Source of the DNA: Nonomuraea sp.
GTDB lineage: Bacteria; Actinomycetota; Actinomycetes; Streptosporangiales; Streptosporangiaceae
Length of the DNA: 8,259 nucleotides
Direction of reading: 5' to 3'
Assembly: GCA_013362835.1 (NCBI GenBank)
Contig: JABFVJ010000416.1
Span: 1 to 8,259 of the forward strand
This document shows, in pieces, positions 1 through 8,259 of this stretch; within the stretch, counting starts at the first letter, position 1; each line of letters begins with the position of its first letter. The position numbers were made by a program, and so were the translations under genes. Under the pieces are notes generated by a model. The model made no database searches and was not told where the DNA came from. It was given only the letters and a program-made list of their open reading frames with translations.

Positions 1-1358
1 CGCACGAGCCGCTCCCGGTCGCCGCCGAAGCGCGCCAGCGCCTCGCGCTGCCACGCCGCGCCGGTGCGGCGCAGCCGGGTGCGCTGGGCGACGACGTCCA
101 GGGCGGTGTCGGCGTCGTGCGGCGTCACCCCGGCCGCGAGCAGCGCCGCGCGTGCCTCGGGCAGCAGGTTGAGCACCAGGTCGGCGGCCTCGAACTCGCC
201 TTCGACGCCCGGCCAGGTCATCTTGGCGTCCAGCCCGTCCCTGGCCGCGCGGTAGAAGTTCTGGTACGCCTCCGCGAACCGATAACCGGTCAGGTCGCGC
301 TCGGCCTGCGCCAGCGTCAGCCCGATCAGGAACGCGGTGTTCGCGGCCATGTCCGCGCACGAGGGCCCGGCGGGCAGCGCGCGCATCTCGATCCGCAGGT
401 GGCCGCCGTCGGCCGGGTCGTAGACGGGCCGGTTCCACTGCCAGATCGTGCCCTGGTGCAGCCGCAGCTCGGGCACCTCGTACGGCCGGGCGTCGTCGGT
501 CAGGTCGGGCACGATCGGCTCGTAGTCCCGTACGTACCGCTCGAACAGCTCGTGGGCGCCCTCCCGCACCCAGTCGGAGCCGAACGTGACCCGCCCGTCC
601 CTGCGCCCGCGCCGCTCCACGTCGCGGTCGTCGGCCGCCTCCTCCATGAGCGCGATCCGCGTCTCCGCCCACAGCTCCCTGCCCAGGAAGAACGGCGAGT
701 TGCCGCACGCGGCCAGCACCGGCCCGATGGCGAGCTGGGCGGCGTTGAACACCCGGGCGAACCGGTCGGGCGGCACGCGCATGTGCACCTGCCAGGAGGT
801 GTTGGCGCTTTCGAGTATCACGTCCTCCACGGCCAGCTCCAGGTCCTCGATCTTGACCAGGAACGGTTCGAGCCGCAGCCGCCTGATTCCCCTGCTCATC
901 GCCCGGTAGCGGTTCTGGTCGCTCATCGCGCCGACGGTGAAGTCGTCGGCGTCGAGCGTGGGCAGGATGCCGATCGGCAGCGCGCCGCCGCCCTCGACGG
1001 CGGTGTCCACGGCGGCGTCCACCTTGGTCAGCGTCTCCTGGATCTCCGCGCCCATCCGCTCGAAGGGCGCGCCCGCGAGGGGCGTGGGGGTGAGGTTGAC
1101 CTCTATGTTGAAGCGGCCCAGTTCGAGCACGACGCGGGGGTCGTCGAGCAGGTCCCGCACCTCGTCGTTGCGCGGCAGGGGCCGCCCGTCCTCGTCGATC
1201 AGGAACAGCTCCAGCTCGGCCCCGATCGTGGCCGGGCCCTGTCCGAAGCCGGGGGTTTCGAGCAGCTCGCGGAGGGTCGCGAGCTGCTCCTGGACGCGTT
1301 CCCCGAAGCGCACGTACTCCGCCTCGGAAAATCGCTCTTTATCCAGATCTCGTCCCAT
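1..1358 (-). CDS. Glutamate-cysteine ligase family protein (GCS2-like carboxylate-amine ligase), C-terminus cut by window edge
   Basis: Reading the minus strand from the ATG at 1358 gives an open frame of 452 codons that leaves the window at base 1 without a stop. The protein shows ligase-family landmarks: GAELELFLID (residues 46-55), LELGRFNIEVNLTP (78-91), ESANTSWQVHM (183-193), a GNSPFF segment near 216, HQGTIWQWNRPVYD (301-314) and HLRIEMRALPAGPS (320-333). In this family the acidic residues of the first two motifs are expected to bind metal-ATP, and members join the gamma-carboxyl of glutamate to an amine such as cysteine. Relatives are about 500 residues, so some tens of residues are probably missing. 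No mycothiol or ergothioneine gene is visible nearby, so the true acceptor amine is unknown. It lies 35 bases after the reductase gene on the same strand and may be co-transcribed. The purine-rich AAGGGAG sits only 2 bases before the ATG, which is short; a GTG at codon 16 is an alternative start. No signal peptide; cytoplasmic. Confidence 0.85.
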   Translation of the reverse strand, partial: MGRDLDKERFSEAEYVRFGERVQEQLATLRELLETPGFGQGPATIGAELELFLIDEDGRPLPRNDEVRDLLDDPRVVLELGRFNIEVNLTPTPLAGAPFERMGAEIQETLTKVDAAVDTAVEGGGALPIGILPTLDADDFTVGAMSDQNRYRAMSRGIRRLRLEPFLVKIEDLELAVEDVILESANTSWQVHMRVPPDRFARVFNAAQLAIGPVLAACGNSPFFLGRELWAETRIALMEEAADDRDVERRGRRDGRVTFGSDWVREGAHELFERYVRDYEPIVPDLTDDARPYEVPELRLHQGTIWQWNRPVYDPADGGHLRIEMRALPAGPSCADMAANTAFLIGLTLAQAERDLTGYRFAEAYQNFYRAARDGLDAKMTWPGVEGEFEAADLVLNLLPEARAALLAAGVTPHDADTALDVVAQRTRLRRTGAAWQREALARFGGDRERLV

Positions 1359-1393
1359 CGCTCCCTTCTGTCCAGCATGTAAGTGTTGACACC

Positions 1394-2104
1394 TCACCAG
1401 CCGATAGGACCTGCATCCTCCAGGTAGGCCCCGGTCGGACCGTCGTCGTCCAGGGTCGCCAGCCGTACGGCGATGGCCGCCCCCTGCTCCGGCGTACGGA
1501 ACCCGCTGTTCCCGTTGAGGTCGGTGGCGCAGTAGCCGGGGTTGGCCGCGTTCACCTTGATCGGAGTGCCCATCAGCTCCTTGGCGTAGGAGACGGTGAT
1601 CATGTTGAGCGCGGTCTTGGAGGAGTTGTACGCGACGAAGTTGGCTTCCCAGTACGGCGTGTCCGGGTTCAGCGCCAGGCTGATCGAGCCGAGCTCGCTC
1701 GACATGTTCACGATCCGGCCCGCCGGCGACCTGCGCAGCAGCGGCAGCATGGCGTTCGTCACGGTGACCACGCCGAACACGTTGGTCTCGTAGACGTCCC
1801 TGAGGTCCTGGGCGCCTGCGGCGCTGGGGACGGTGGCGCTCATGCTGCCGGCGACCCCGGCGTTGTTGACGAGGACGTCGAGCGAGCCGTACTCGGCCTC
1901 GATCCACTTGGCGGCGGCGGCCACGCTCGCCTCGTCGGTCACGTCGATCGGCACGTACGGCTGCCCCAGCCGCGCGGCGGCGGCCCGGCCGCGCTCCTCG
2001 TCGCGGGCCCCGACGATCGCGGTGATCCCCCGCTCGGCGAGCAGCCGCGCGATCTCGAAGCCGATTCCCTTGTTGGCACCCGTGATGAGGGCGGTTGTCG
2101 TCAT
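1394..2104 (-). CDS. SDR family NAD(P)-dependent oxidoreductase (carbonyl-reductase-like)
   Basis: A 236-residue classical short-chain dehydrogenase/reductase. The cofactor-binding glycine motif TGANKGIG is at residues 8-15, the structural NNAG motif at 80-83, the active-site serine in NMSSELGS (probably Ser136), and the catalytic YNSSK gives Tyr159 and Lys163. The VGAR at 31-34 after the second strand places Arg34 where NADPH-preferring members carry a basic residue, so NADPH is likely. The serine-to-tyrosine gap is 23 residues instead of the usual 13, from an insertion around 140-157, as in carbonyl-reductase and isopiperitenone-reductase-like members. The substrate is unknown. The gene is divergent from an MmyB-like regulator 114 bases away, a pairing reported to recur in actinomycetes, and that regulator probably controls it. 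A G-rich stretch just before the ATG at 2104 could serve as ribosome binding site; it overlaps a 10-base palindrome. The start is secure because the glycine motif falls at the usual distance from it. Confidence 0.92.
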   Translation of the reverse strand: MTTTALITGANKGIGFEIARLLAERGITAIVGARDEERGRAAAARLGQPYVPIDVTDEASVAAAAKWIEAEYGSLDVLVNNAGVAGSMSATVPSAAGAQDLRDVYETNVFGVVTVTNAMLPLLRRSPAGRIVNMSSELGSISLALNPDTPYWEANFVAYNSSKTALNMITVSYAKELMGTPIKVNAANPGYCATDLNGNSGFRTPEQGAAIAVRLATLDDDGPTGAYLEDAGPIGW

Positions 2105-2108
2105 GCCC

Positions 2109-2118
2109 CCAACGTTGG
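2109..2118. promoter_or_regulatory. Perfect 10-base palindrome before the reductase gene, candidate operator
   Basis: CCAACGTTGG reads identically on both strands and ends 4 bases before the start codon of the reductase, overlapping its presumed ribosome binding site. It lies in the divergent region shared with the XRE/MmyB-like regulator, where a dimeric regulator would be expected to bind. The palindrome is seen directly; operator function is inferred. Confidence 0.4.
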
Positions 2119-2138
2119 CGCAGGCCGGAGCACGTACG

Positions 2139-2154
2139 GGAGAGACCTGGAGAG
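2139..2154. promoter_or_regulatory. Phased direct repeat GGAGAG-N4-GGAGAG, candidate regulator or promoter element
   Basis: Two copies of GGAGAG (2139-2144 and 2149-2154) are spaced exactly 10 bases apart, one helical turn, in the middle of the divergent region between the reductase and its regulator. A GGTACC palindrome follows at 2167-2172. Such same-face spacing suits a protein contacting both copies, but in G-rich DNA a short repeat could arise by chance. No convincing -10/-35 pair was found here. Confidence 0.3.
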
Positions 2155-2218
2155 GCTGGGATCAGCGGTACCACCCACGCGGGCCCGCTCGTCCCCGCTC
2201 AGGGCGGAAGATGGAGGC

Positions 2219-3049
2219 ATGAACCGCGACGAACTGGCCGAATTCCTGCGCAGCAGGCGCGCCCGCGTCACCCCGTCCGAGGTGGGCCTGCCGAGCGGCG
2301 GGCAGCGCCGCACCCCCGGCCTGCGCAGGCAGGAGGTGGCCCAGCTCGCCGGCATGTCGATCGACTACTACATCCGGCTGGAGCAGGGCAGGGGCCCGCA
2401 CCCGTCACGGCAGGTGCTGAGCGCCCTGGGCCGGGCTCTCATGCTCGGCCAGGACGAGCGCGCCCACCTGTTCCGGCTGGCCGGGCAGACGCTGGACACG
2501 CCCAGGATCAGGCACGACGTGCCGCAGAGCATCCTGCACCTGATCGCGTTCATGGAGGAGGTCCCCGCCTACGTCCTGGACGCCCGCTACGACATCCGCG
2601 CCTGGAACCCGCTGGCGAGCGCGCTCATAGGCGGCCTGGAGTGCCGGCCGCCCGAGCAGATGAACGTGATCCGCTGGGTGTTCACCGCGCCCGACCTCGC
2701 CGAGCACCTCGGCGACGAGGAGAAGGGCCGCTTCGCCCGCGCCTCGGTCGCCGACCTGCGCGTGGCCGCCGGCCGCTACCCCGACGACCGGGCGCTCCAG
2801 GCGCTGGTGGCGGAGATGATGGCGCTCAGCCCCTGCTTCGCGGAGCTGTGGTCGATGCACGAGGTGGAGGTGCGCAGGGAGCAGCGCAAGCGCGTCATCC
2901 ACCCGGTCGTCGGCGTGATCGACACGATCTGCCAGGTGCTGCCCGTGCCCGACCGCGACGATCTCCGGCTGGTGCTCTACACCACAGAACCTGGGTCGCC
3001 CTCCCACCAGGCCTTGCGCGACCTGCGGCGACTCACTCTAAGCTCATGA
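2219..3049 (+). CDS. XRE-type helix-turn-helix regulator with MmyB/MltR-like ligand-binding domain
   Basis: A 276-residue regulator. Residues about 30-85 form an XRE-type helix-turn-helix ([20 protein letters not shown], then [13 protein letters not shown]). Residues about 103-270 match the MmyB-like C-terminal module, with the landmarks [19 protein letters not shown] (118-136), a WVFTAPD segment (153-159) and HPVVGVID (228-235). This module is PAS-related; the structurally studied member MltR from Chloroflexus was found with a bound fatty acid, and MmyB activates the methylenomycin cluster. An amphipathic ligand is therefore plausible here but not shown. The N-terminus [14 protein letters not shown] is typical for the family and fixes the start. 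GGAGG lies only 1 base before the ATG; the CGGAAG at 2205-2210 is at better spacing. The gene diverges from a reductase it likely controls, and its stop is 1 base before an alcohol dehydrogenase that may share its transcript. Confidence 0.92.
3014..3044 (+). promoter_or_regulatory. Possible leaderless promoter for the alcohol dehydrogenase
   Basis: TTGCGC (3014-3019) and TAAGCT (3039-3044, fitting the actinobacterial TANNNT -10 pattern) are separated by 19 bases. The -10 element ends 6 bases before the A of the dehydrogenase ATG at 3051, the geometry expected of a leaderless transcript. No good ribosome binding site precedes that ATG. The spacer is long and the -35 poor, so the alternative is translational coupling to the upstream regulator. 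Confidence 0.22.
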
Positions 3050-3050
3050 G

Positions 3051-4088
3051 ATGCGAGCGGTTGCCTTTGACATCTTCGGTGGGGAGCTCGACGTGCGCGA
3101 GCTGCCCGATCCCACGCCTGCGCCACACGGGGCGGTGATCAGGGTCGAGGCGACCGGGCTGTGCCGTTCCGACTGGCACGGCTGGCAGGGGCACGATCCC
3201 GACATCAAGGCCCTCCCCCACGTTCCCGGCCACGAGCTGGCGGGCGTGATCGAGGCCGTCGGCTCCGACGTGCGCGGCTGGCTGCCGGGGGCGCGGGTGA
3301 CGGTGCCGTTCGTCTGCGCCTGCGGCTCCTGCGCGTCCTGCGCCACCGGCGACCAGCAGGTGTGCGAACGGCAGACCCAGCCGGGCTTCACCCACTGGGG
3401 CTCCTACGCCGAGTACGTCGCGATCGACCACGCCGACGTCAACCTGATCGCGATCCCCGAGGAGATGGCCTACGTCACCGCCGCCGGGCTCGGCTGCCGC
3501 TTCGCCACCGCCTTCCGCGCGGTCGTCCAGGTGGGCGGCGTGCGGCCGGGCGAGTGGGTCGCGGTGCACGGCTGCGGCGGCGTCGGGCTGTCCGCCGTGA
3601 TGATCGCCTCCGCGGCCGGGGCCCGCGTGGTGGCCGTGGACATCAGCAGCGACGCGCTGCACCTGGCCGAGATGGCCGGCGCCACCCACTTCGTCAACGG
3701 CTCGGCCGGTGACGCGGCGGCCCAGGTCAGGGAGCTGACCAGGGGCGGCGCGCACGTGTCACTCGACGCGCTCGGCAGCGACCGCACGTGCGCGGCCTCC
3801 GTCGAGAGCCTGCGCCGCCGGGGCCGGCACGTCCAGGTGGGGCTGCTGCCCGGAGGGGCGACGCCGGTGCCGATGGACCGCGTGATCGGCCACGAGCTGC
3901 GGCTGCTCGGCAGCCACGGCATGGCCGCGCACGCCTACCCGGAGATGCTGGAGCTGATCAGGGCCGGGATCCTCCACCCCGACCAGCTCGTCACCCGCAC
4001 GATCGGGCTCGCCGACGCGGGCAAGGCCCTGGCCTCGATCGGCTCGGTCCCGGGCGTCACGATGATCACCCCGCGCTCCGGCGTCTGA
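3051..4088 (+). CDS. Zinc-dependent alcohol dehydrogenase (medium-chain dehydrogenase/reductase family)
   Basis: A 345-residue medium-chain dehydrogenase with both zinc sites intact. Catalytic zinc ligands are Cys38 (GLCRSDW), His61-Glu62 (GHE) and Cys149 (GLGCRFATA). The structural zinc ligands are Cys91, Cys94, Cys97 and Cys105 in the usual spacing. The Rossmann motif GCGGVG is at 174-179, and Asp197 at the end of the next strand (VVAVDIS) indicates NAD(H) over NADP(H). Length is normal and there is no signal peptide. It should interconvert an alcohol and an aldehyde or ketone in the cytoplasm; the substrate cannot be read from sequence. The start lies 1 base after the regulator's TGA, which suggests a shared transcript with coupled translation, or a leaderless transcript. 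It ends 26 bases from the convergent carboxymuconolactone-decarboxylase-family gene, with no strong terminator hairpin between them. Confidence 0.93.
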
Positions 4089-4114: not shown

Positions 4115-4603
4115 TCACTCCTCCAGCTGCACGCGGAGGGTCCGCAGCACCAGCGCCAGCATGGCGTAATGCGCCACGAGCATGACCAGCTCCATCCTGC
4201 ACGTCTCGTCGTAGCGGTCGCAGAGCGCCGCCCAGGTGGCGTCGGTGAGGTCGCCCGCGTAGTGGAGGTCGTCGGCCACCTGTAAGACCAGGCGGTCCTC
4301 GACCGGCCACAGGGCGTCCGGCTGGCGGATCGACTCGATCTCCAGATCCGTCAGCCCCGCCTCGCGGCCGATGCGGACGTGGTGGGCCCACTCGTACGCG
4401 CTGCCGCTGTGGTAGGCGGTGCGCAGGATGGCGAGCTCGCGGTCGCGGGCCGGCAGCGTGCCGTTCAGCAGCGCGCCGCCGAAGCGCAGCCACTCCTTGT
4501 AGACCGCGGGGTGCCGGGCGAGCGTGGTGAACACGTTGTAGGGGTTCGCCTTCTGAAAGTCGTCCCACTCTTCCGGGGGCAGGGGCTCCACTCGAGGCTT
4601 CAT
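4115..4603 (-). CDS. Carboxymuconolactone decarboxylase family protein without the redox cysteine pair
   Basis: A 162-residue all-helical CMD/AhpD-like protein. The family core is RELAILRTAYHSGSAYEWAHH (R55 to H75), followed by HVRIGREAGL. In AhpD peroxidases this helix carries a CxxC pair; here those positions have no cysteine, and the only cysteines (Cys128, Cys135) lie elsewhere, so AhpD-type peroxidase chemistry is unlikely. The retained Glu56, Tyr70, Glu71 and His74/His75 suggest the acid-base subgroup with YEW..H. The substrate is unknown; lactone or peroxide-related roles are both reported in the family. The start at 4603 is supported by GGGGAAGG about 8 bases upstream; a second ATG at 4610 is in another frame. 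Leu107 is encoded by TTA, rare in this GC-rich DNA. A 16-base inverted repeat lies upstream at 4621-4636. Divergent from the response regulator by 127 bases. Confidence 0.85.
   Translation of the reverse strand: MKPRVEPLPPEEWDDFQKANPYNVFTTLARHPAVYKEWLRFGGALLNGTLPARDRELAILRTAYHSGSAYEWAHHVRIGREAGLTDLEIESIRQPDALWPVEDRLVLQVADDLHYAGDLTDATWAALCDRYDETCRMELVMLVAHYAMLALVLRTLRVQLEE
4283..4285 (-). other. In-frame TTA leucine codon (codon 107 of the CMD-family gene)
   Basis: TAA on the plus strand at 4283-4285 reads TTA in the frame of the gene starting at 4603. I found no other in-frame TTA in the genes of this window by eye. In Streptomyces and relatives TTA is read by the single developmentally controlled bldA tRNA, so this codon can delay translation until aerial growth. 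Whether that holds in this organism is inferred. Confidence 0.85.
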
Positions 4604-4620
4604 GGCCCATACCTTCCCCG

Positions 4621-4636
4621 AAGAGCGGGCGCTCTT
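4621..4636. promoter_or_regulatory. 16-base inverted repeat, candidate operator of the CMD-family gene
   Basis: AAGAGCG and CGCTCTT are perfect 7-base inverted arms around a GG spacer. The element ends 17 bases before the CMD-family start codon and sits just downstream of a candidate minus-strand promoter, around the expected transcription start. That is a typical position for a dimeric repressor, or alternatively a small 5' hairpin. No dedicated repressor gene is adjacent; the nearest regulator is the response regulator at 4731. Confidence 0.45.
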
Positions 4637-4642
4637 GACGCT

Positions 4643-4673
4643 TACATAGGGGGACTTTTCACGCCGCGGTCAA
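4643..4673 (-). promoter_or_regulatory. Candidate promoter of the CMD-family gene
   Basis: On the minus strand TTGACC (4668-4673) and TATGTA (4643-4648) are 19 bases apart, giving a predicted start near 4636, where the inverted repeat begins. The -35 is a good match to the housekeeping sigma consensus, the -10 only partial. GGTCA also repeats on the plus strand at 4668-4672 and 4676-4680, and a GGTCGACC palindrome lies at 4712-4719. I see no clear promoter for the plus-strand response regulator. Confidence 0.35.
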
Positions 4674-4730
4674 TAGGTCAGGATTGAGGCGCCCGCAGAC
4701 GTTGCAAGCCTGGTCGACCGCAAGGACCCC

Positions 4731-5339
4731 ATGGTGATTCGAACGTTGCTCGCTGAGGACATGCACCTGGTACGAGGAGCGCTCGTGGCGTTGCTGGCCT
4801 ACGAGGACGACATCGAGATCGTGGCGGAGGTGGAACGGGGCGACGCCATCCTGGCCGCGGCCAACGCCTGCCGTCCCGACGTCGCGGTGCTCGACATCGC
4901 CCTCCCGGGCCTGGACGGCCTGGCCGCGGCCGGCCAGCTCCACGAGCAGCTGCCCGAGTGCGGGGTGCTGATCCTGACCGGGGTCGGCACGCCCGGCCTG
5001 CTGAAACGGGCGCTGGAGGTGCACGTACGCGGGTTCATGGCCAAGGACGCGCCGCCGGGCCGGCTGGCCGACGGGATCAGGAGGGTGGCCGACGGGGAGC
5101 GCGTGATCGACTCCGAGCTGGCCATCGCCGCCATGCGGCCGGAGGAGTCGCCGCTCACGCCCCGCGAGCTGGACGTGATCGGCGCGGCGGCCGACGGCGC
5201 CTCGATCGGGGAGATCGCGGCGTCGCTGTTCCTCGCCGAGGGCACGGTCAGGAACTACCTGTGCAGGACGACGGCCAAGCTCGGCGCCCGCAGCCGGATC
5301 GACGCCATCCGCATCGCCCGCGAGTCCGGCTGGATCTGA
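4731..5339 (+). CDS. NarL/LuxR-type response regulator without adjacent sensor kinase
   Basis: A 202-residue two-domain regulator. The receiver domain (about 3-118) keeps the acidic pair Glu9-Asp10, phospho-acceptor Asp55 (VLDIALPG), Thr83 (ILTG) and Lys105 (MAKD), so it should be phosphorylatable. A LuxR-type helix-turn-helix follows (about 141-200): LTPRELDVI, SIGEIAASLFLAEGTVRNYL, KLGAR. No histidine kinase gene is adjacent. That makes it an orphan here, like RamR and AmfR, the regulators of SapB and AmfS lanthipeptide loci in streptomycetes. A DesR-like regulator with a distant kinase is the alternative. AAGGA at 4722-4726 lies 4 bases before the ATG and supports the start. It converges on the prolyl oligopeptidase gene with a 9-base gap, and diverges from the CMD-family gene. 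A natural target would be the exporter/peptidase operon, but this is not shown. Confidence 0.9.
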   Translation: MVIRTLLAEDMHLVRGALVALLAYEDDIEIVAEVERGDAILAAANACRPDVAVLDIALPGLDGLAAAGQLHEQLPECGVLILTGVGTPGLLKRALEVHVRGFMAKDAPPGRLADGIRRVADGERVIDSELAIAAMRPEESPLTPRELDVIGAAADGASIGEIAASLFLAEGTVRNYLCRTTAKLGARSRIDAIRIARESGWI

Positions 5340-5348
5340 CCCCGGGGC

Positions 5349-7328
5349 TCAGGGCCGGGTGTGCGCCGCGAGGAAGGCCAGGACGTCGGCGGCCAGGGCG
5401 ATCGAACGGCTGACCGCCCGCGCCCCGTGGCCGACGCCCGTCTCGTACCGCAGCAGGACCGGCCGCGTCCCCGAGGTCGCCCACTGCATCGCCGCGCACA
5501 TCTTGCGGGCGTGCATCGGGTCCACCCGCGTGTCCCCGGCCGAGACGGTGAACAACGTCGCCGGATAGTCGGCGCCCTCGCGCACCCGGTGGTACGGCGA
5601 GTACGCCAGCAGCCAGGCCAGGTGGTCGGGGTCGCCGGGGTCGCCGTACTCGCCGGTCCAGGAGGGGCCGAGGCCGGTGCGGTGGTAGCGGGCCATGTCC
5701 AGCAGCCCGGCGGAGCACACGGCGGCGGCGAACAGGTCGGGGCGCTGGGTGAGCGCGGCGCCCACGAGCAGGCCGCCGTTGGACTCTCCCCAGATGCCGA
5801 GCCGGTCGGGGGTCGTCCAGCCGTCGGCGACCAGTTTCTCGGCCGCCGCGACGAAGTCGTCGAACACGTTCTGCTTGCGTTCGAGCATGCCGTCCCGGTG
5901 CCAGGACTCGCCCTCCTCGCCGCCGCCGCGCAGGTTGGCGATGGCGAGCACGCCGCCCGCCTCCACCCAGGCCAGCGAGTCGGCCGCGTAGCCGGGCATG
6001 AGGGGGATGCCGAAGCCGCCGTAGCCGGTGAGGATCGCCGGGCGGGGGCCGGAGTCGGAGGAGAGCGCGACGACCACCATGCGGACGCGGGTGCCGTCGG
6101 CCGATTCGTACTCGACGTGGTGGCTCTTCACGTCGGGGAGCGCGACGCCGCCGGGAGGGGCGGCCCAGAGGGTGGCGGCGCCGGTGCGGGCGTCGTAGCG
6201 CCAGATCTCGGCGGGGGTGACGGCGTCGGTGTAGGTGAACCACGCCTCGTGGCCGCCCTCGGGGCGCGAGGTGAGCGAGGCGATCGAGCCGCTGCCGGGC
6301 AGCGGCACCTCGCCCAGCCGCTCCCCCGTGCGGGCGTCGTGCACGGCGATCTCGCCGACCGCGTGGCGGGTCCTGGAGACGAGCAGGCGGCCGCCGTCCA
6401 GCAGGGTGAACGCGCCGAGCACCGCCCCCGGCTCCTCGGGGACGAGCTCGTGCCACGCCTCGGGCTCGTCAGGATCGGCCACGCACAGCCTGCGCCGGGG
6501 GGCGTTCCTGTCGGTGAGCAGGTACAGGCGGCCGTCGCAGGCCACCGCCCCCGCCGTGCGCGCGTGCCCTTCCTCCTGTACGGCCCGCAGCCGCGGCCTG
6601 CCCGGATCCCCGCCGGCCAGGTCGGCCAGCCAGAGCGAGTTGCCCGTCGAGCCGCCCGCGGAGATCGTCAGCCAGCGGCCGTCCGCGCTGAGCTGGACGC
6701 CGTAGGAGACCGGCCCTCTTTCGAAGACCGGGACGTCGACGGGGTCGCCCAGCCGGTGCAGGTGCACGCCCTGGTGGAAGCGCACGTAGTAGAAGCCTTC
6801 GCCGCCGGGCAGCCAGGCGACCGGCGAGTAGCGGCAGCCGCCGATCGGGCCGTCGACCACCCTGCCGGTGTCGACCTCCTCGACGTACAGGTCGGCCTGC
6901 TCGTCGCCGCTCCTGGAGATCTGGTACGCGACCAGGCGGCCCTCCGGGTCCGGCTGCCAGTCGTCCAGGGTGGTCAGGCCGGTCGGGTCGCGGTCGGCCG
7001 GGTTCAGGAAGGGGCGGTCGTCGCAGTAGAGGATCGGGTGTTCCTGGCAGCCGGACTGCCGCAGGTGGAAGCGGCGGCCGCCGCGCCACACGGGCGGGGT
7101 GACCAGGCCCGTGACGCTGAGCTCGGTCAGCCTGGCCAGGAACCGCTCGCGGTCCGGCAGCCCGGCCGCGGCCGACCGCCACAGCCGGTCCTGCGCCTCC
7201 AGCCAGGCGGCGGTCCGCGCGTCGAGGGGGTCCTCCAGCGACCGGTACGGGTCGTGGATCTCGTGCCCGTGGACGCGGTCGGTGACCGGGTGGCGCTCGG
7301 CGTGCGGGTACTGATCTGGAAATGTCAT
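5349..7328 (-). CDS. Prolyl oligopeptidase family serine peptidase (S9A)
   Basis: A 659-residue S9A peptidase of usual length. An N-terminal helix segment (YPHAERHPVTDRVHGHEIHD) leads to a beta-propeller (about 75-400), then the alpha/beta-hydrolase domain. The catalytic triad is Ser516 (GESNGG), Asp599 (AGDTRVDP) and His634 (GVGHGAR). By motif alignment with porcine prolyl oligopeptidase, Tyr436 (GYGGF) matches the oxyanion tyrosine, Trp557 (SWTGEYGDP) the proline-stacking tryptophan and Arg601 the substrate-carboxylate arginine, so cleavage after proline in short peptides is likely. NLRGGGEEGESWH (465-477) is also characteristic. There is no signal peptide, so it acts in the cytoplasm. Its ATG overlaps the exporter stop as ATGA, with GGAG (7337-7340) 8 bases upstream, so the two are translationally coupled. 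FlaP, a member of this family, trims the leader of the class III lanthipeptide flavipeptin; a similar role is possible. A general peptide-degrading role is the alternative. Confidence 0.93.
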   Translation of the reverse strand: MTFPDQYPHAERHPVTDRVHGHEIHDPYRSLEDPLDARTAAWLEAQDRLWRSAAAGLPDRERFLARLTELSVTGLVTPPVWRGGRRFHLRQSGCQEHPILYCDDRPFLNPADRDPTGLTTLDDWQPDPEGRLVAYQISRSGDEQADLYVEEVDTGRVVDGPIGGCRYSPVAWLPGGEGFYYVRFHQGVHLHRLGDPVDVPVFERGPVSYGVQLSADGRWLTISAGGSTGNSLWLADLAGGDPGRPRLRAVQEEGHARTAGAVACDGRLYLLTDRNAPRRRLCVADPDEPEAWHELVPEEPGAVLGAFTLLDGGRLLVSRTRHAVGEIAVHDARTGERLGEVPLPGSGSIASLTSRPEGGHEAWFTYTDAVTPAEIWRYDARTGAATLWAAPPGGVALPDVKSHHVEYESADGTRVRMVVVALSSDSGPRPAILTGYGGFGIPLMPGYAADSLAWVEAGGVLAIANLRGGGEEGESWHRDGMLERKQNVFDDFVAAAEKLVADGWTTPDRLGIWGESNGGLLVGAALTQRPDLFAAAVCSAGLLDMARYHRTGLGPSWTGEYGDPGDPDHLAWLLAYSPYHRVREGADYPATLFTVSAGDTRVDPMHARKMCAAMQWATSGTRPVLLRYETGVGHGARAVSRSIALAADVLAFLAAHTRP

Positions 7329-8259
7329 GAAACGGGCTCCGGTTGCCAGTGGCCGGCCAGGTCGGCGTACAGGGGCGAGACCCGGACCAGCTCGTCGTGG
7401 GTGCCGATCGTGATCCGGGGACCGTCCATGAGCAGGACGCGGCGGGCGCGCAGCGCGGAGGTTAGGCGGTGCGCGACCACGACGAGCGTGCCGCCCCTGG
7501 CCGCGAACGCGTTCTCGGCGCGGGCCTCGGCGGCGGGGTCCAGGTGGCAGGTGGCCTCGTCCAGGATGATCAGCGGGGCGGGGGTGAGGTGGGCGCGGAC
7601 GAGGGCGACGAGCTGCCGCTGCCCGGCCGACAGCGCGGACGGGTCCAGCGTGGCGTCGTACCCGCCCAGGCTCTCGACCAGGTCGCCCGCTCCCAGGTCC
7701 GCGACCGCCCTGTCCAGCTCGGTCGTGCCCGGCGCGAGGTAGGTGAGGTTGTCGCGCAGGGTGCCGCGGAAGACGTACGCCTCCTGGGGGATCAGCACCC
7801 GTACGGCGGGGTCGACCCGGTCGGCGGGGACGCCGCCGATCAGCACCTCGCCGTCGCGGGGGCGCAGGGTGCCGCTGATGAGGGCGGCCAGCGTGGACTT
7901 GCCCGCGCCGCTCGGCCCGACGACGGCCAGGTGGTCGCCCTCCGGGACGGTGAGGTCCATCCGGTCGAGCACCGGCGCGGAGTGGGGGCCGTAGGAGAAG
8001 GTGGCGGACGTGATCGTGACGGCGGTGCCGGGCGGCCGGATCCGGGGCGTGTCCGGTGGCGGGGGCGGCGCGGCGGCGGCGATGCGGGCCAGCGTGGCGG
8101 CGAGCCTGACGCCGCTCACCCCGAGCCCCTGGACGAGCCCGCCGAGCGCGGGGGCCAGCGACTGGGTGACGTAGGCGAGCGCGCCGACGATCACGCCGGG
8201 GCCCGCGCCGCCGTCGAGCAGCCAGGGGGTGCCCGCCAGGACGAGGACGACGGGCAGCC
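7325..8259 (-). CDS. ABC exporter half-transporter (membrane domain fused to ATPase), N-terminus cut by window edge
   Basis: The frame stays open to the right edge, so the GTG at 8194 is not the real start. Reading in from the edge gives hydrophobic sequence (LPVVLVLAG, VIVGALAYVTQSLAPALGGL) that looks like the last transmembrane helices of a type I exporter, then a proline-rich linker, then a complete ATPase domain. The ATPase has an A-loop tyrosine (FSYGP), Walker A GPSGAGKST (7892-7918), a Q-loop Gln (7784-7786), signature LSAGQ (7619-7633), Walker B LIILDEA (7553-7573, catalytic Glu present) and the H-loop His (7469-7471). All catalytic residues are intact. DEATCHLDPAAEARAE after Walker B resembles, from memory, exporters of SapB/AmfS-type loci (RamA/RamB, AmfA/AmfB), which are membrane-plus-ATPase half-transporters used in pairs. 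Exported substrate is therefore perhaps a peptide. It is translationally coupled to the downstream prolyl oligopeptidase. Confidence 0.9.
   Translation of the reverse strand, partial: LPVVLVLAGTPWLLDGGAGPGVIVGALAYVTQSLAPALGGLVQGLGVSGVRLAATLARIAAAAPPPPPDTPRIRPPGTAVTITSATFSYGPHSAPVLDRMDLTVPEGDHLAVVGPSGAGKSTLAALISGTLRPRDGEVLIGGVPADRVDPAVRVLIPQEAYVFRGTLRDNLTYLAPGTTELDRAVADLGAGDLVESLGGYDATLDPSALSAGQRQLVALVRAHLTPAPLIILDEATCHLDPAAEARAENAFAARGGTLVVVAHRLTSALRARRVLLMDGPRITIGTHDELVRVSPLYADLAGHWQPEPVS

What the first reader, a model, noticed from the sequence alone, without database searches (positions are those of the whole stretch)
4731..8259. Possible tail of a class III lanthipeptide-like (SapB/AmfS or flavipeptin-like) cluster
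Seen: an orphan NarL/LuxR response regulator converging on a minus-strand operon of an ABC half-exporter and a prolyl oligopeptidase. Known: ram/amf loci combine a LanKC synthetase, a small precursor, two ABC half-exporters and an orphan LuxR-type regulator; the flavipeptin locus uses the prolyl oligopeptidase FlaP to remove the leader. Inferred: this is the downstream end of such a cluster, with the second half-exporter, precursor and synthetase beyond base 8259. The combination of RamR-like regulator and dedicated S9A peptidase in one locus would be noteworthy, because many ram/amf-type loci lack an obvious leader protease.
Basis: partly seen in the sequence, partly recalled or inferred. Interest (0 to 1): 0.75.

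Follow-up and report, generated by a model that had tools for sequence, protein, structure and literature searches.

The report
Tail of a flavipeptin-type lanthipeptide cluster
This stretch of a soil actinomycete's chromosome (very probably Nonomuraea) looks like the end of a gene cluster for a small ring-bearing peptide, carrying that peptide's exporter, leader-cutting protease and regulator; it is a new genus for a known kind of cluster rather than a new kind.

Summary
The window has the 3' end of an ABC half-exporter (7325-8259, minus), a prolyl oligopeptidase (POP, 5349-7328, minus; ATGA overlap) and a convergent NarL/LuxR response regulator (RR, 4731-5339). No genome is held for it, so its own flank was not read; relatives supply the missing half. 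The nearest, in the genus of Nonomuraea jiangxiensis, is 88-90% identical over most of the window. All 31 such loci with enough contig carry LanKC, a 43-residue precursor, T1, T2 and POP in the window's order; the RR is beside POP in 30, displaced in one. Commonest precursor: MVLLDLQGLEAPAASDVASGGSTLTVLSCHSGKPSNLSVALCH. In trees the exporter groups with LanKC-linked T2 proteins, the RR with most LanKC-linked RRs, and the POP with all 39 LanKC-adjacent POPs sampled, apart from 30 unlinked ones. Kribbella, home of flavipeptin, has the same genes with POP further upstream. This is a new genus-level branch of flavipeptin-type class III clusters; RR plus POP is their normal layout. Leader Pro12 does not mark POP (22 of 44 POP-less loci have it); a PSNLSxxLCH core does (59 of 59 against 0 of 44), on only two evolutionary changes.

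The parts
7325..8259 (-). C-terminal 310 residues (ATPase domain and end of the membrane part) of ABC half-exporter T2 (RamB-like); runs off the window
   Evidence: ABC_tran; 87% identical to T2 of the nearest relative and inside the LanKC-linked T2 clade (44 rows, 99/94*) in the tree
5349..7328 (-). Prolyl oligopeptidase (S9A, FlaP-like), 659 aa, putative triad S516/D599/H634; no signal peptide seen by eye (no tool run)
   Evidence: Pfam S9_N + S9; triad by alignment with 2bkl; in one clade with all 39 LanKC-adjacent POPs sampled, SH-aLRT 100
7325..7328 (-). ATGA overlap of exporter stop and POP start (translational coupling inferred)
   Evidence: sequence
4731..5339 (+). NarL/LuxR-type response regulator, RamR-like, presumed phospho-acceptor Asp55, convergent with the POP operon
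   Evidence: Pfam; groups with most LanKC-linked RRs, 94/91; D55 position
4115..4603 (-). Carboxymuconolactone decarboxylase-like protein; neighbour, not part of the biosynthesis
   Evidence: beside the RR in many but not all relatives
3051..4088 (+). Zinc alcohol dehydrogenase; neighbour conserved in most relatives
2219..3049 (+). HTH_31 + MLTR_LBD regulator; neighbour in many relatives
1394..2104 (-). Short-chain dehydrogenase; neighbour in many relatives
3..1364 (-). YbdK-like glutamate-cysteine ligase family protein (weak, below-cut-off family match), cut at the window start; neighbour in many relatives

Best explanation
The window is the 3' end of a flavipeptin-type class III lanthipeptide locus in a Nonomuraea chromosome. 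Beyond base 8259, on the minus strand, lie the rest of T2, then T1, a precursor (LanA) of about 43 residues and LanKC. Working model: the RR activates the lanKC-lanA-T1-T2-POP operon; LanKC phosphorylates, dehydrates and cyclises two Ser-x-x-Ser/Thr-x-x-x-Cys units; the POP then cuts the ring-bearing precursor in the cytosol after Pro12 of the leader; a general aminopeptidase trims the remaining SDVASGG-type spacer; and the T1/T2 pair exports the peptide, perhaps a SapB-like surface-active developmental peptide. Shown here: gene content and order in relatives, clade membership of the three window genes, alignment of the catalytic residues, Pro12 in every precursor found in the POP-bearing loci. 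Inferred: the window's own upstream genes, the RR target, the cleavage site, the second trimming step and the biological role.
For: The nearest relative L153 (genome G086) matches the window collinearly at 90.5% (1-4081) and 88.0% (4583-8259) and continues into T2, T1, LanA and LanKC. LanKC there scores 1077 bits against a cut-off of 575 for NF038151 and LanA 46.7 bits against a cut-off of 25 for NF033212, SapB/AmfS lanthipeptide. Of 33 loci with this type of POP in the genus set, two are cut by contig ends and 31 of 31 others carry LanKC + LanA + T1 + T2 + POP. Nonomuraea gerenzanensis, a named organism, has LanKC, T1, T2, POP, RR and the window's other neighbours in the same order (its LanA was not called separately, but L160, with the same layout and coordinates, has one). 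Trees: POP, RR, exporter. The precursor is under purifying selection (pN/pS 0.20 over 31 sequences). Published analogues: FlaP cuts FlaA efficiently after Pro(-12) only when the rings are in place (PMC10885120, passages); ramR lies beside ramB and RamR activates the ramC operon (PMC5650626, passages).
Against: The window's own flank was not seen. Support for the group of LanKC-linked RRs is moderate (94/91), one unlinked paralogue (L294) falls inside it and RRs of three other LanKC loci fall outside. Pro12 also occurs in 22 of 44 POP-less loci, and only one of six Brevibacterium precursors in loci with a weak FlaP homologue has a leader proline (PMC5719810, passage), so the cut site is not proved by the leader. 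Nothing here shows expression, product or RR binding.
Confidence: 0.93

Rival explanations
1. The exporter and POP are ordinary housekeeping or efflux genes and the lanthipeptide link is coincidence.
For: S9A POPs are common; four Nonomuraea genomes carry other POPs 57-59% identical to this one, and 79 RR and 60 exporter-like matches at E<=1e-12 occur in G086 alone.
Against: POP, exporter and RR each fall with LanKC-linked proteins; 31 of 31 relatives with enough contig carry the full gene set; none of the 30 unlinked POPs has a LanKC match in the stretch held.
Confidence: 0.03
2. The cluster is degenerate: the tail remains but LanKC, LanA or T1 has been lost in this strain, so no peptide is made.
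For: One Kribbella locus, L192, has LanKC pieces, POP and RR, with no T1, T2 or LanA detected, so decay happens.
Against: The window's POP, exporter fragment and RR are open and intact in key motifs; no locus of the Nonomuraea genus set with enough contig lacks a part (31 of 31).
Confidence: 0.03
3. The locus is a SapB/AmfS-type (ram-like) cluster that recruited a POP on its own, not flavipeptin-type.
For: NCBIfam files the precursors under SapB/AmfS; RR and both exporters are homologous to those of SapB-like loci.
Against: All LanKC-adjacent POPs sampled form one clade; LanKCs of POP-bearing loci group apart from those of SapB-like loci; none of the 10 precursors with a GDSSLS unit lies beside a POP, whereas all 59 in POP-bearing loci have the PSNLSxxLCH core.
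Confidence: 0.03

Closest known systems
Flavipeptin (Fla) locus of Kribbella flavida, with POP FlaP
   Same: LanKC, LanA, POP, T1, T2 and convergent RR in Kribbella stretches; LanKC-linked POPs of both genera in one clade; precursor with LDLQGL(E/Q)(A/T)P leader and two ring units ending PSNLSxxLCH
   Different: POP follows T2 here but sits before T1 in 20 of 20 Kribbella stretches that have a T1; spacer after Pro12 is mostly SDVASGG rather than Gly/His-rich. The original FlaP paper is not in the library; known here from passages in PMC10885120, PMC5719810 and PMC8960859
ram/amf loci making SapB/AmfS in Streptomyces
   Same: LanKC-LanA-T1-T2 with a convergent RR at the far end in 8 of 10 loci with a GDSSLS (SapB-like) precursor; leader Pro12 in 8 of those 10
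Class V lanthipeptide loci with a POP (Nonomuraea gerenzanensis plasmid p1, Streptomyces plasmid pADI95-16a)
   Same: A related S9A POP sits beside lanthipeptide genes
   Different: Different synthetase (LxmK), and these POPs fall outside the LanKC-linked clade

Membership tests
Flavipeptin-type class III lanthipeptide locus | LanKC synthetase in the locus | tested here: inconclusive
   Not in the window, which ends too soon; present in 31 of 31 relatives with enough contig
Flavipeptin-type class III lanthipeptide locus | LanA with LxLQ leader, leader Pro and two Ser-x-x-Ser/Thr-x-x-x-Cys units | tested here: inconclusive
   Outside the window; present in 31 of 31 relatives with enough contig, all with Pro12
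Flavipeptin-type class III lanthipeptide locus | FlaP-clade POP with intact triad | tested here: met
   FlaP itself was not named in the tree, only Kribbella LanKC-linked POPs
Flavipeptin-type class III lanthipeptide locus | Two ABC half-exporters | tested here: inconclusive
   T2 is in the window and in the right clade; T1 is seen only in relatives
Flavipeptin-type class III lanthipeptide locus | POP cleaves the modified precursor after the leader Pro | not testable with these tools
   Biochemical; reported for FlaP (PMC10885120, passages)
RamR-like response regulator | NarL/LuxR-type RR converging on the exporter end, grouping with RRs of SapB-like loci | tested here: met
   Position; tree 94/91 with one unlinked paralogue inside. 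RamR of S. coelicolor itself was not in the tree under that name
RamR-like response regulator | Binds upstream of lanKC and activates it | not testable with these tools
   Reported for RamR (PMC5650626, passages); a short conserved box upstream of lanKC was seen but not linked to the RR
SapB/AmfS (ram) locus proper | No POP; LanKC grouping with SapB-type LanKCs | tested here: not met
   POP present; LanKCs of POP-bearing loci group apart from SapB-like ones

The most novel reading that the evidence does not exclude
Nonomuraea carries a developmental lanthipeptide of the flavipeptin line, widespread in the genus at one chromosomal site, in which the dedicated POP acts as a quality check: it came with, and in one lineage left with, the ring core ending PSNLSxxLCH rather than with the leader proline it cuts, so recognition of the closed rings rather than the cut site would define the protease-substrate pair.
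Probability: 0.3. Interest if true: 0.5.

Novelty: new member of a known kind. Interest (0 to 1): 0.33.

Why it matters
Class III loci of actinobacteria usually lack a protease gene (PMC7268733, passage), which hinders production of their peptides. This adds a genus (FlaP-type POP in at least 34 of 54 genomes of the set) to those published with a clustered FlaP-like protease, with near-identical precursors and naturally varied spacers and cores for testing how a POP recognises a modified substrate. It also shows that leader Pro12 is shared with POP-less loci, so it cannot by itself predict POP processing.

Tried and rejected
Leader Pro as a marker for POP: rejected, since 22 of 44 POP-less loci with a detected LanA also have Pro12. 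Core type as a marker: 59 of 59 against 0 of 44, but only two independent changes on the LanKC tree (sign test p 0.5), so suggestive only. The 44 come from 71 POP-less stretches among L205-L283; in the other 27 my motif rule found no LanA and they were dropped. Among these is L274, which has a partial POP match (45% identity, 193 bits) about 4.7 kb from LanKC; I did not pursue it. A POP beyond the roughly 6 kb read on each side would have been missed.

Unlinked FlaP in the Pro12-bearing sister loci L243, L244, L247, L250: searched. Their best POPs (L344, L345, L347, L348) fall with unlinked POPs; a split match in G108 (L352, L353; 61% and 48% identity) and L351 were not put in the tree. The L249 genome (G242) likewise has only an unlinked-type POP at E<=1e-60 (L346).

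Plasmid origin of the window: a plasmid search with the POP found the closest copy (79.9%) in a record labelled plasmid but 11.85 Mb long, which I take for the N. gerenzanensis chromosome; the three smaller plasmids I opened carry other loci.

Regulator motif: an alignment of 31 lanKC upstream regions showed a conserved TGT-x-ACTAG box; I could not link it to the RR and left it.

The genus search missed G072. G009 is unnamed; its 7,579,488-base contig is what I recall for the K. flavida chromosome, but no call confirms that.

Trees: searches are quick searches, and all four trees used a simple model; several long branches were flagged (L216, L357, L039 and others). Rows used: the window, 18 Nonomuraea, 13 Kribbella and 8 other LanKC-adjacent POPs, 28 of 51 Nonomuraea and Kribbella loci plus all 52 others with a LanA. 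L251 dropped out of the RR tree. In one search, 27 paralogues were used of the 30 loci returned from 101 matches, the other three being T2 of POP loci and labelled so.

One search recounted the tallies.
Full report
What is in the window. The exporter stop and POP start overlap as ATGA. The POP aligns over its length with solved prolyl endopeptidases, best 2bkl; its S516, D599 and H634 stand opposite S533, D616 and H651 of 2bkl (counted; that these are the catalytic three is recalled). To the left lie a CMD-family protein, a zinc dehydrogenase, an HTH/MLTR regulator, a short-chain dehydrogenase and a YbdK-like ligase, the last on a weak match.

Whose genome it is. No whole genome is held for the window. 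Of the 28 closest POPs in the protein database (75-88% identity), 24 are named Nonomuraea, one Actinomadura sp. ATCC 31491, and three bear no organism. The nearest genome, G086, matches the window collinearly at 90.5% over 1-4081 and 88.0% over 4583-8259 (locus L153). G086 belongs to the set returned as the genus of G039, the genome of Nonomuraea jiangxiensis. I take the source to be a Nonomuraea.

The missing half. Of 54 genomes in that genus set, 33 have a POP at E<=1e-235; G072 was missed there and turned up as L224, so at least 34 of 54. All 34 places were fetched. One, L184, is a second POP of G051, 88.8% identical to the unlinked L006, on a contig that ends within 3 kb upstream. Two, L164 and L166, are cut by the contig end. 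The other 31 of 31 show LanKC, a 43-residue LanA, T1, T2 and POP in that order. The RR follows POP on the opposite strand after 4-169 bases (match edges) in 30; in L151 the block from RR to ligase lies the other way round, with the ligase next to POP. The precursor of G086 reads MVLLDLQGLEAPAASDVASGGSTLTALTCHSGHPSNLSVALCH and passes the NCBIfam model for SapB/AmfS lanthipeptides (46.7 bits, cut-off 25). Its LanKC scores 1077 bits against a cut-off of 575. Across 31 precursors pN/pS is 0.20, so the small gene is under purifying selection. Nonomuraea gerenzanensis, a named organism, has the same layout.

Kribbella and others. The best of the 80 loci kept in the named-genome scan is Kribbella antiqua, POP 62% identical, with LanKC, precursor, POP, T1, T2 and a convergent RR. 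Of 38 genomes of that genus set, 28 have a POP at E<=1e-180, in 37 places. I read 21 of the 37 at about 20 kb (L001): a convergent RR in 21 of 21, LanA in 20 of 21, POP before T1 in the 20 that have a T1. The exception, L192, is a decayed locus with LanKC pieces, POP and RR. Kribbella flavida is the source of flavipeptin and FlaP (PMC5719810, passages). POP precedes T1 also in L246, L248 and L254; it follows T2 in the Nonomuraea set and in L216, L224, L245, L252 and L259.

Trees. POP: the window's POP and all 39 LanKC-adjacent POPs sampled form one branch (SH-aLRT 100) apart from 30 other actinobacterial POPs and two POPs of class V plasmid loci. None of the 30 has a LanKC match in the DNA held around it (20 stretches of 7-22 kb, 10 of about 5 kb). 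Exporter: the window fragment sits among T2 proteins of LanKC loci (44 rows, 99/94; 46 rows, 100/100, with two G086 exporters lying about 4 kb from other LanKC-like matches that are below the cut-off), while the other 25 exporters sampled from G086 and G009 lie outside. RR: the window's RR is with its Nonomuraea orthologues (100/100) inside a group of 52 rows (94/91) that holds all 26 RRs of POP loci, 16 of SapB/AmfS-like loci (37-53% identical to the window's), 5 of POP-less sister loci and 4 of 7 RRs of other LanKC loci; one unlinked paralogue, L294, is inside, and L208, L258 and L262 are outside. So RamR-like is a fair description, with moderate support.

What distinguishes POP loci. To sample class III loci without regard to POP, I searched 296 genomes drawn from the class (49 with LanKC at E<=1e-170, 61 places) and fetched the 59 stretches that hold the 60 places other than that of G086: 6 of the 59 have a POP. 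To these I added 20 of the 26 over-cut-off LanKC places of the Nonomuraea set that lie outside the 31 loci. Of 103 loci with a detected precursor, the 59 with POP all have leader Pro12 and all have a PSNLSxxLCH-type core (last residue before Cys L, I or V); of the 44 without POP, 22 have Pro12 and none has that core. Most of the 59 were chosen because they have POP (51 come from the Nonomuraea and Kribbella POP searches), and they are related, so these counts are not independent. On the LanKC tree POP and core each need two changes, and go together both times: most simply one gain at the base of a 37-row group and one loss in L249, which also lacks Pro12. With two events this is not statistical evidence (p 0.5).

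Mechanism. Shown: gene set, order, clade membership, alignment of catalytic residues, Pro12 in 59 of 59. Inferred from FlaP (cuts efficiently after Pro(-12) only when the rings are installed; the rest of the leader probably removed by metalloproteases; PMC10885120, passages) and RamR (activates the ramC operon; PMC5650626, passages): RR activates the operon, LanKC makes the rings, POP cuts after Pro12 in the cytosol, an aminopeptidase trims the spacer, T1/T2 export. Pro12 lies 10 residues before the first core Ser in the usual Nonomuraea precursor and 12 before it in several Kribbella ones such as L201 (counted). A developmental role is a guess from family, spread in the genus and a conserved chromosomal site. 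Against simple reading from leader Pro: of six Brevibacterium precursors in loci with a weak FlaP homologue, only one has a leader proline (PMC5719810, passage).

What is known and what is new. FlaP-like proteases with class III precursors are reported for Kribbella, Streptomyces, Amycolatopsis and Jiangella (PMC8960859, passages), weak homologues for Brevibacterium (PMC5719810, passages), and POPs, for which the name LanPB is proposed, for Streptococcus pneumoniae class III loci (PMC7268733, passages). My searches for Nonomuraea with lanthipeptide and prolyl (no paper), with class III lanthipeptide (four papers listed, one seen in passages, where the class III mention concerns the catenulipeptin-like clusters of two isolates) and with SapB (four papers, listing only) showed no report of this family in Nonomuraea; the library lacks most subscription journals, and supplementary files were not open to me. 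So the find is a genus-level branch of a known kind.

Noticed in passing
L355 (Nonomuraea gerenzanensis plasmid p1, NZ_CP084059.1) 6791-14025: A 48-kb plasmid carries a class V lanthipeptide locus (lxmK, an LxmA-like precursor, flavin-dependent oxidoreductase, flavoprotein) with its own prolyl oligopeptidase about 56% identical to the window's; Streptomyces plasmid pADI95-16a (L357) has lxmK and a POP together too. Both POPs fall outside the LanKC-linked clade.
   Followed up: partly
L151 10001-18061: In this Nonomuraea genome the RR-ADH-MLTR-SDR-ligase block lies the other way round relative to POP, putting the RR about 5.5 kb from the cluster.
   Followed up: no
L192 10949-14803: Decayed flavipeptin-type locus in a Kribbella genome: LanKC pieces, POP and RR, with no T1, T2 or LanA detected.
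   Followed up: no
L249 5974-13148: Locus inside the POP-bearing LanKC clade that lacks POP between T2 and RR and whose precursor has neither leader Pro12 nor the PSNLS core: a possible natural case of joint loss.
   Followed up: partly
L243, L244, L247, L250 downstream of LanKC: POP-less sister loci with two or three tandem precursor genes, cores like SNLSLLGCTPHENSSLSIICG, leader Pro12 kept.
   Followed up: partly
L183 and L216 (genome G080): One genome of the Nonomuraea set holds two separate POP-bearing LanKC clusters; the POP of L216 is strongly diverged (long branch).
   Followed up: no
upstream of LanKC in 31 Nonomuraea loci: A conserved TGT-x-ACTAG box in the otherwise variable upstream region, a possible promoter or regulator site.
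   Followed up: no
L213, L215, L222, L223: Nonomuraea LanKC genes with a convergent RR 50-53% identical to the window's but no T1, T2 or POP match in the stretch read: possibly a further LanKC-RR locus type.
   Followed up: no
L274 8669-9433: A partial POP match (45% identity, 193 bits) about 4.7 kb from a divergent LanKC, near the end of the stretch fetched.
   Followed up: no
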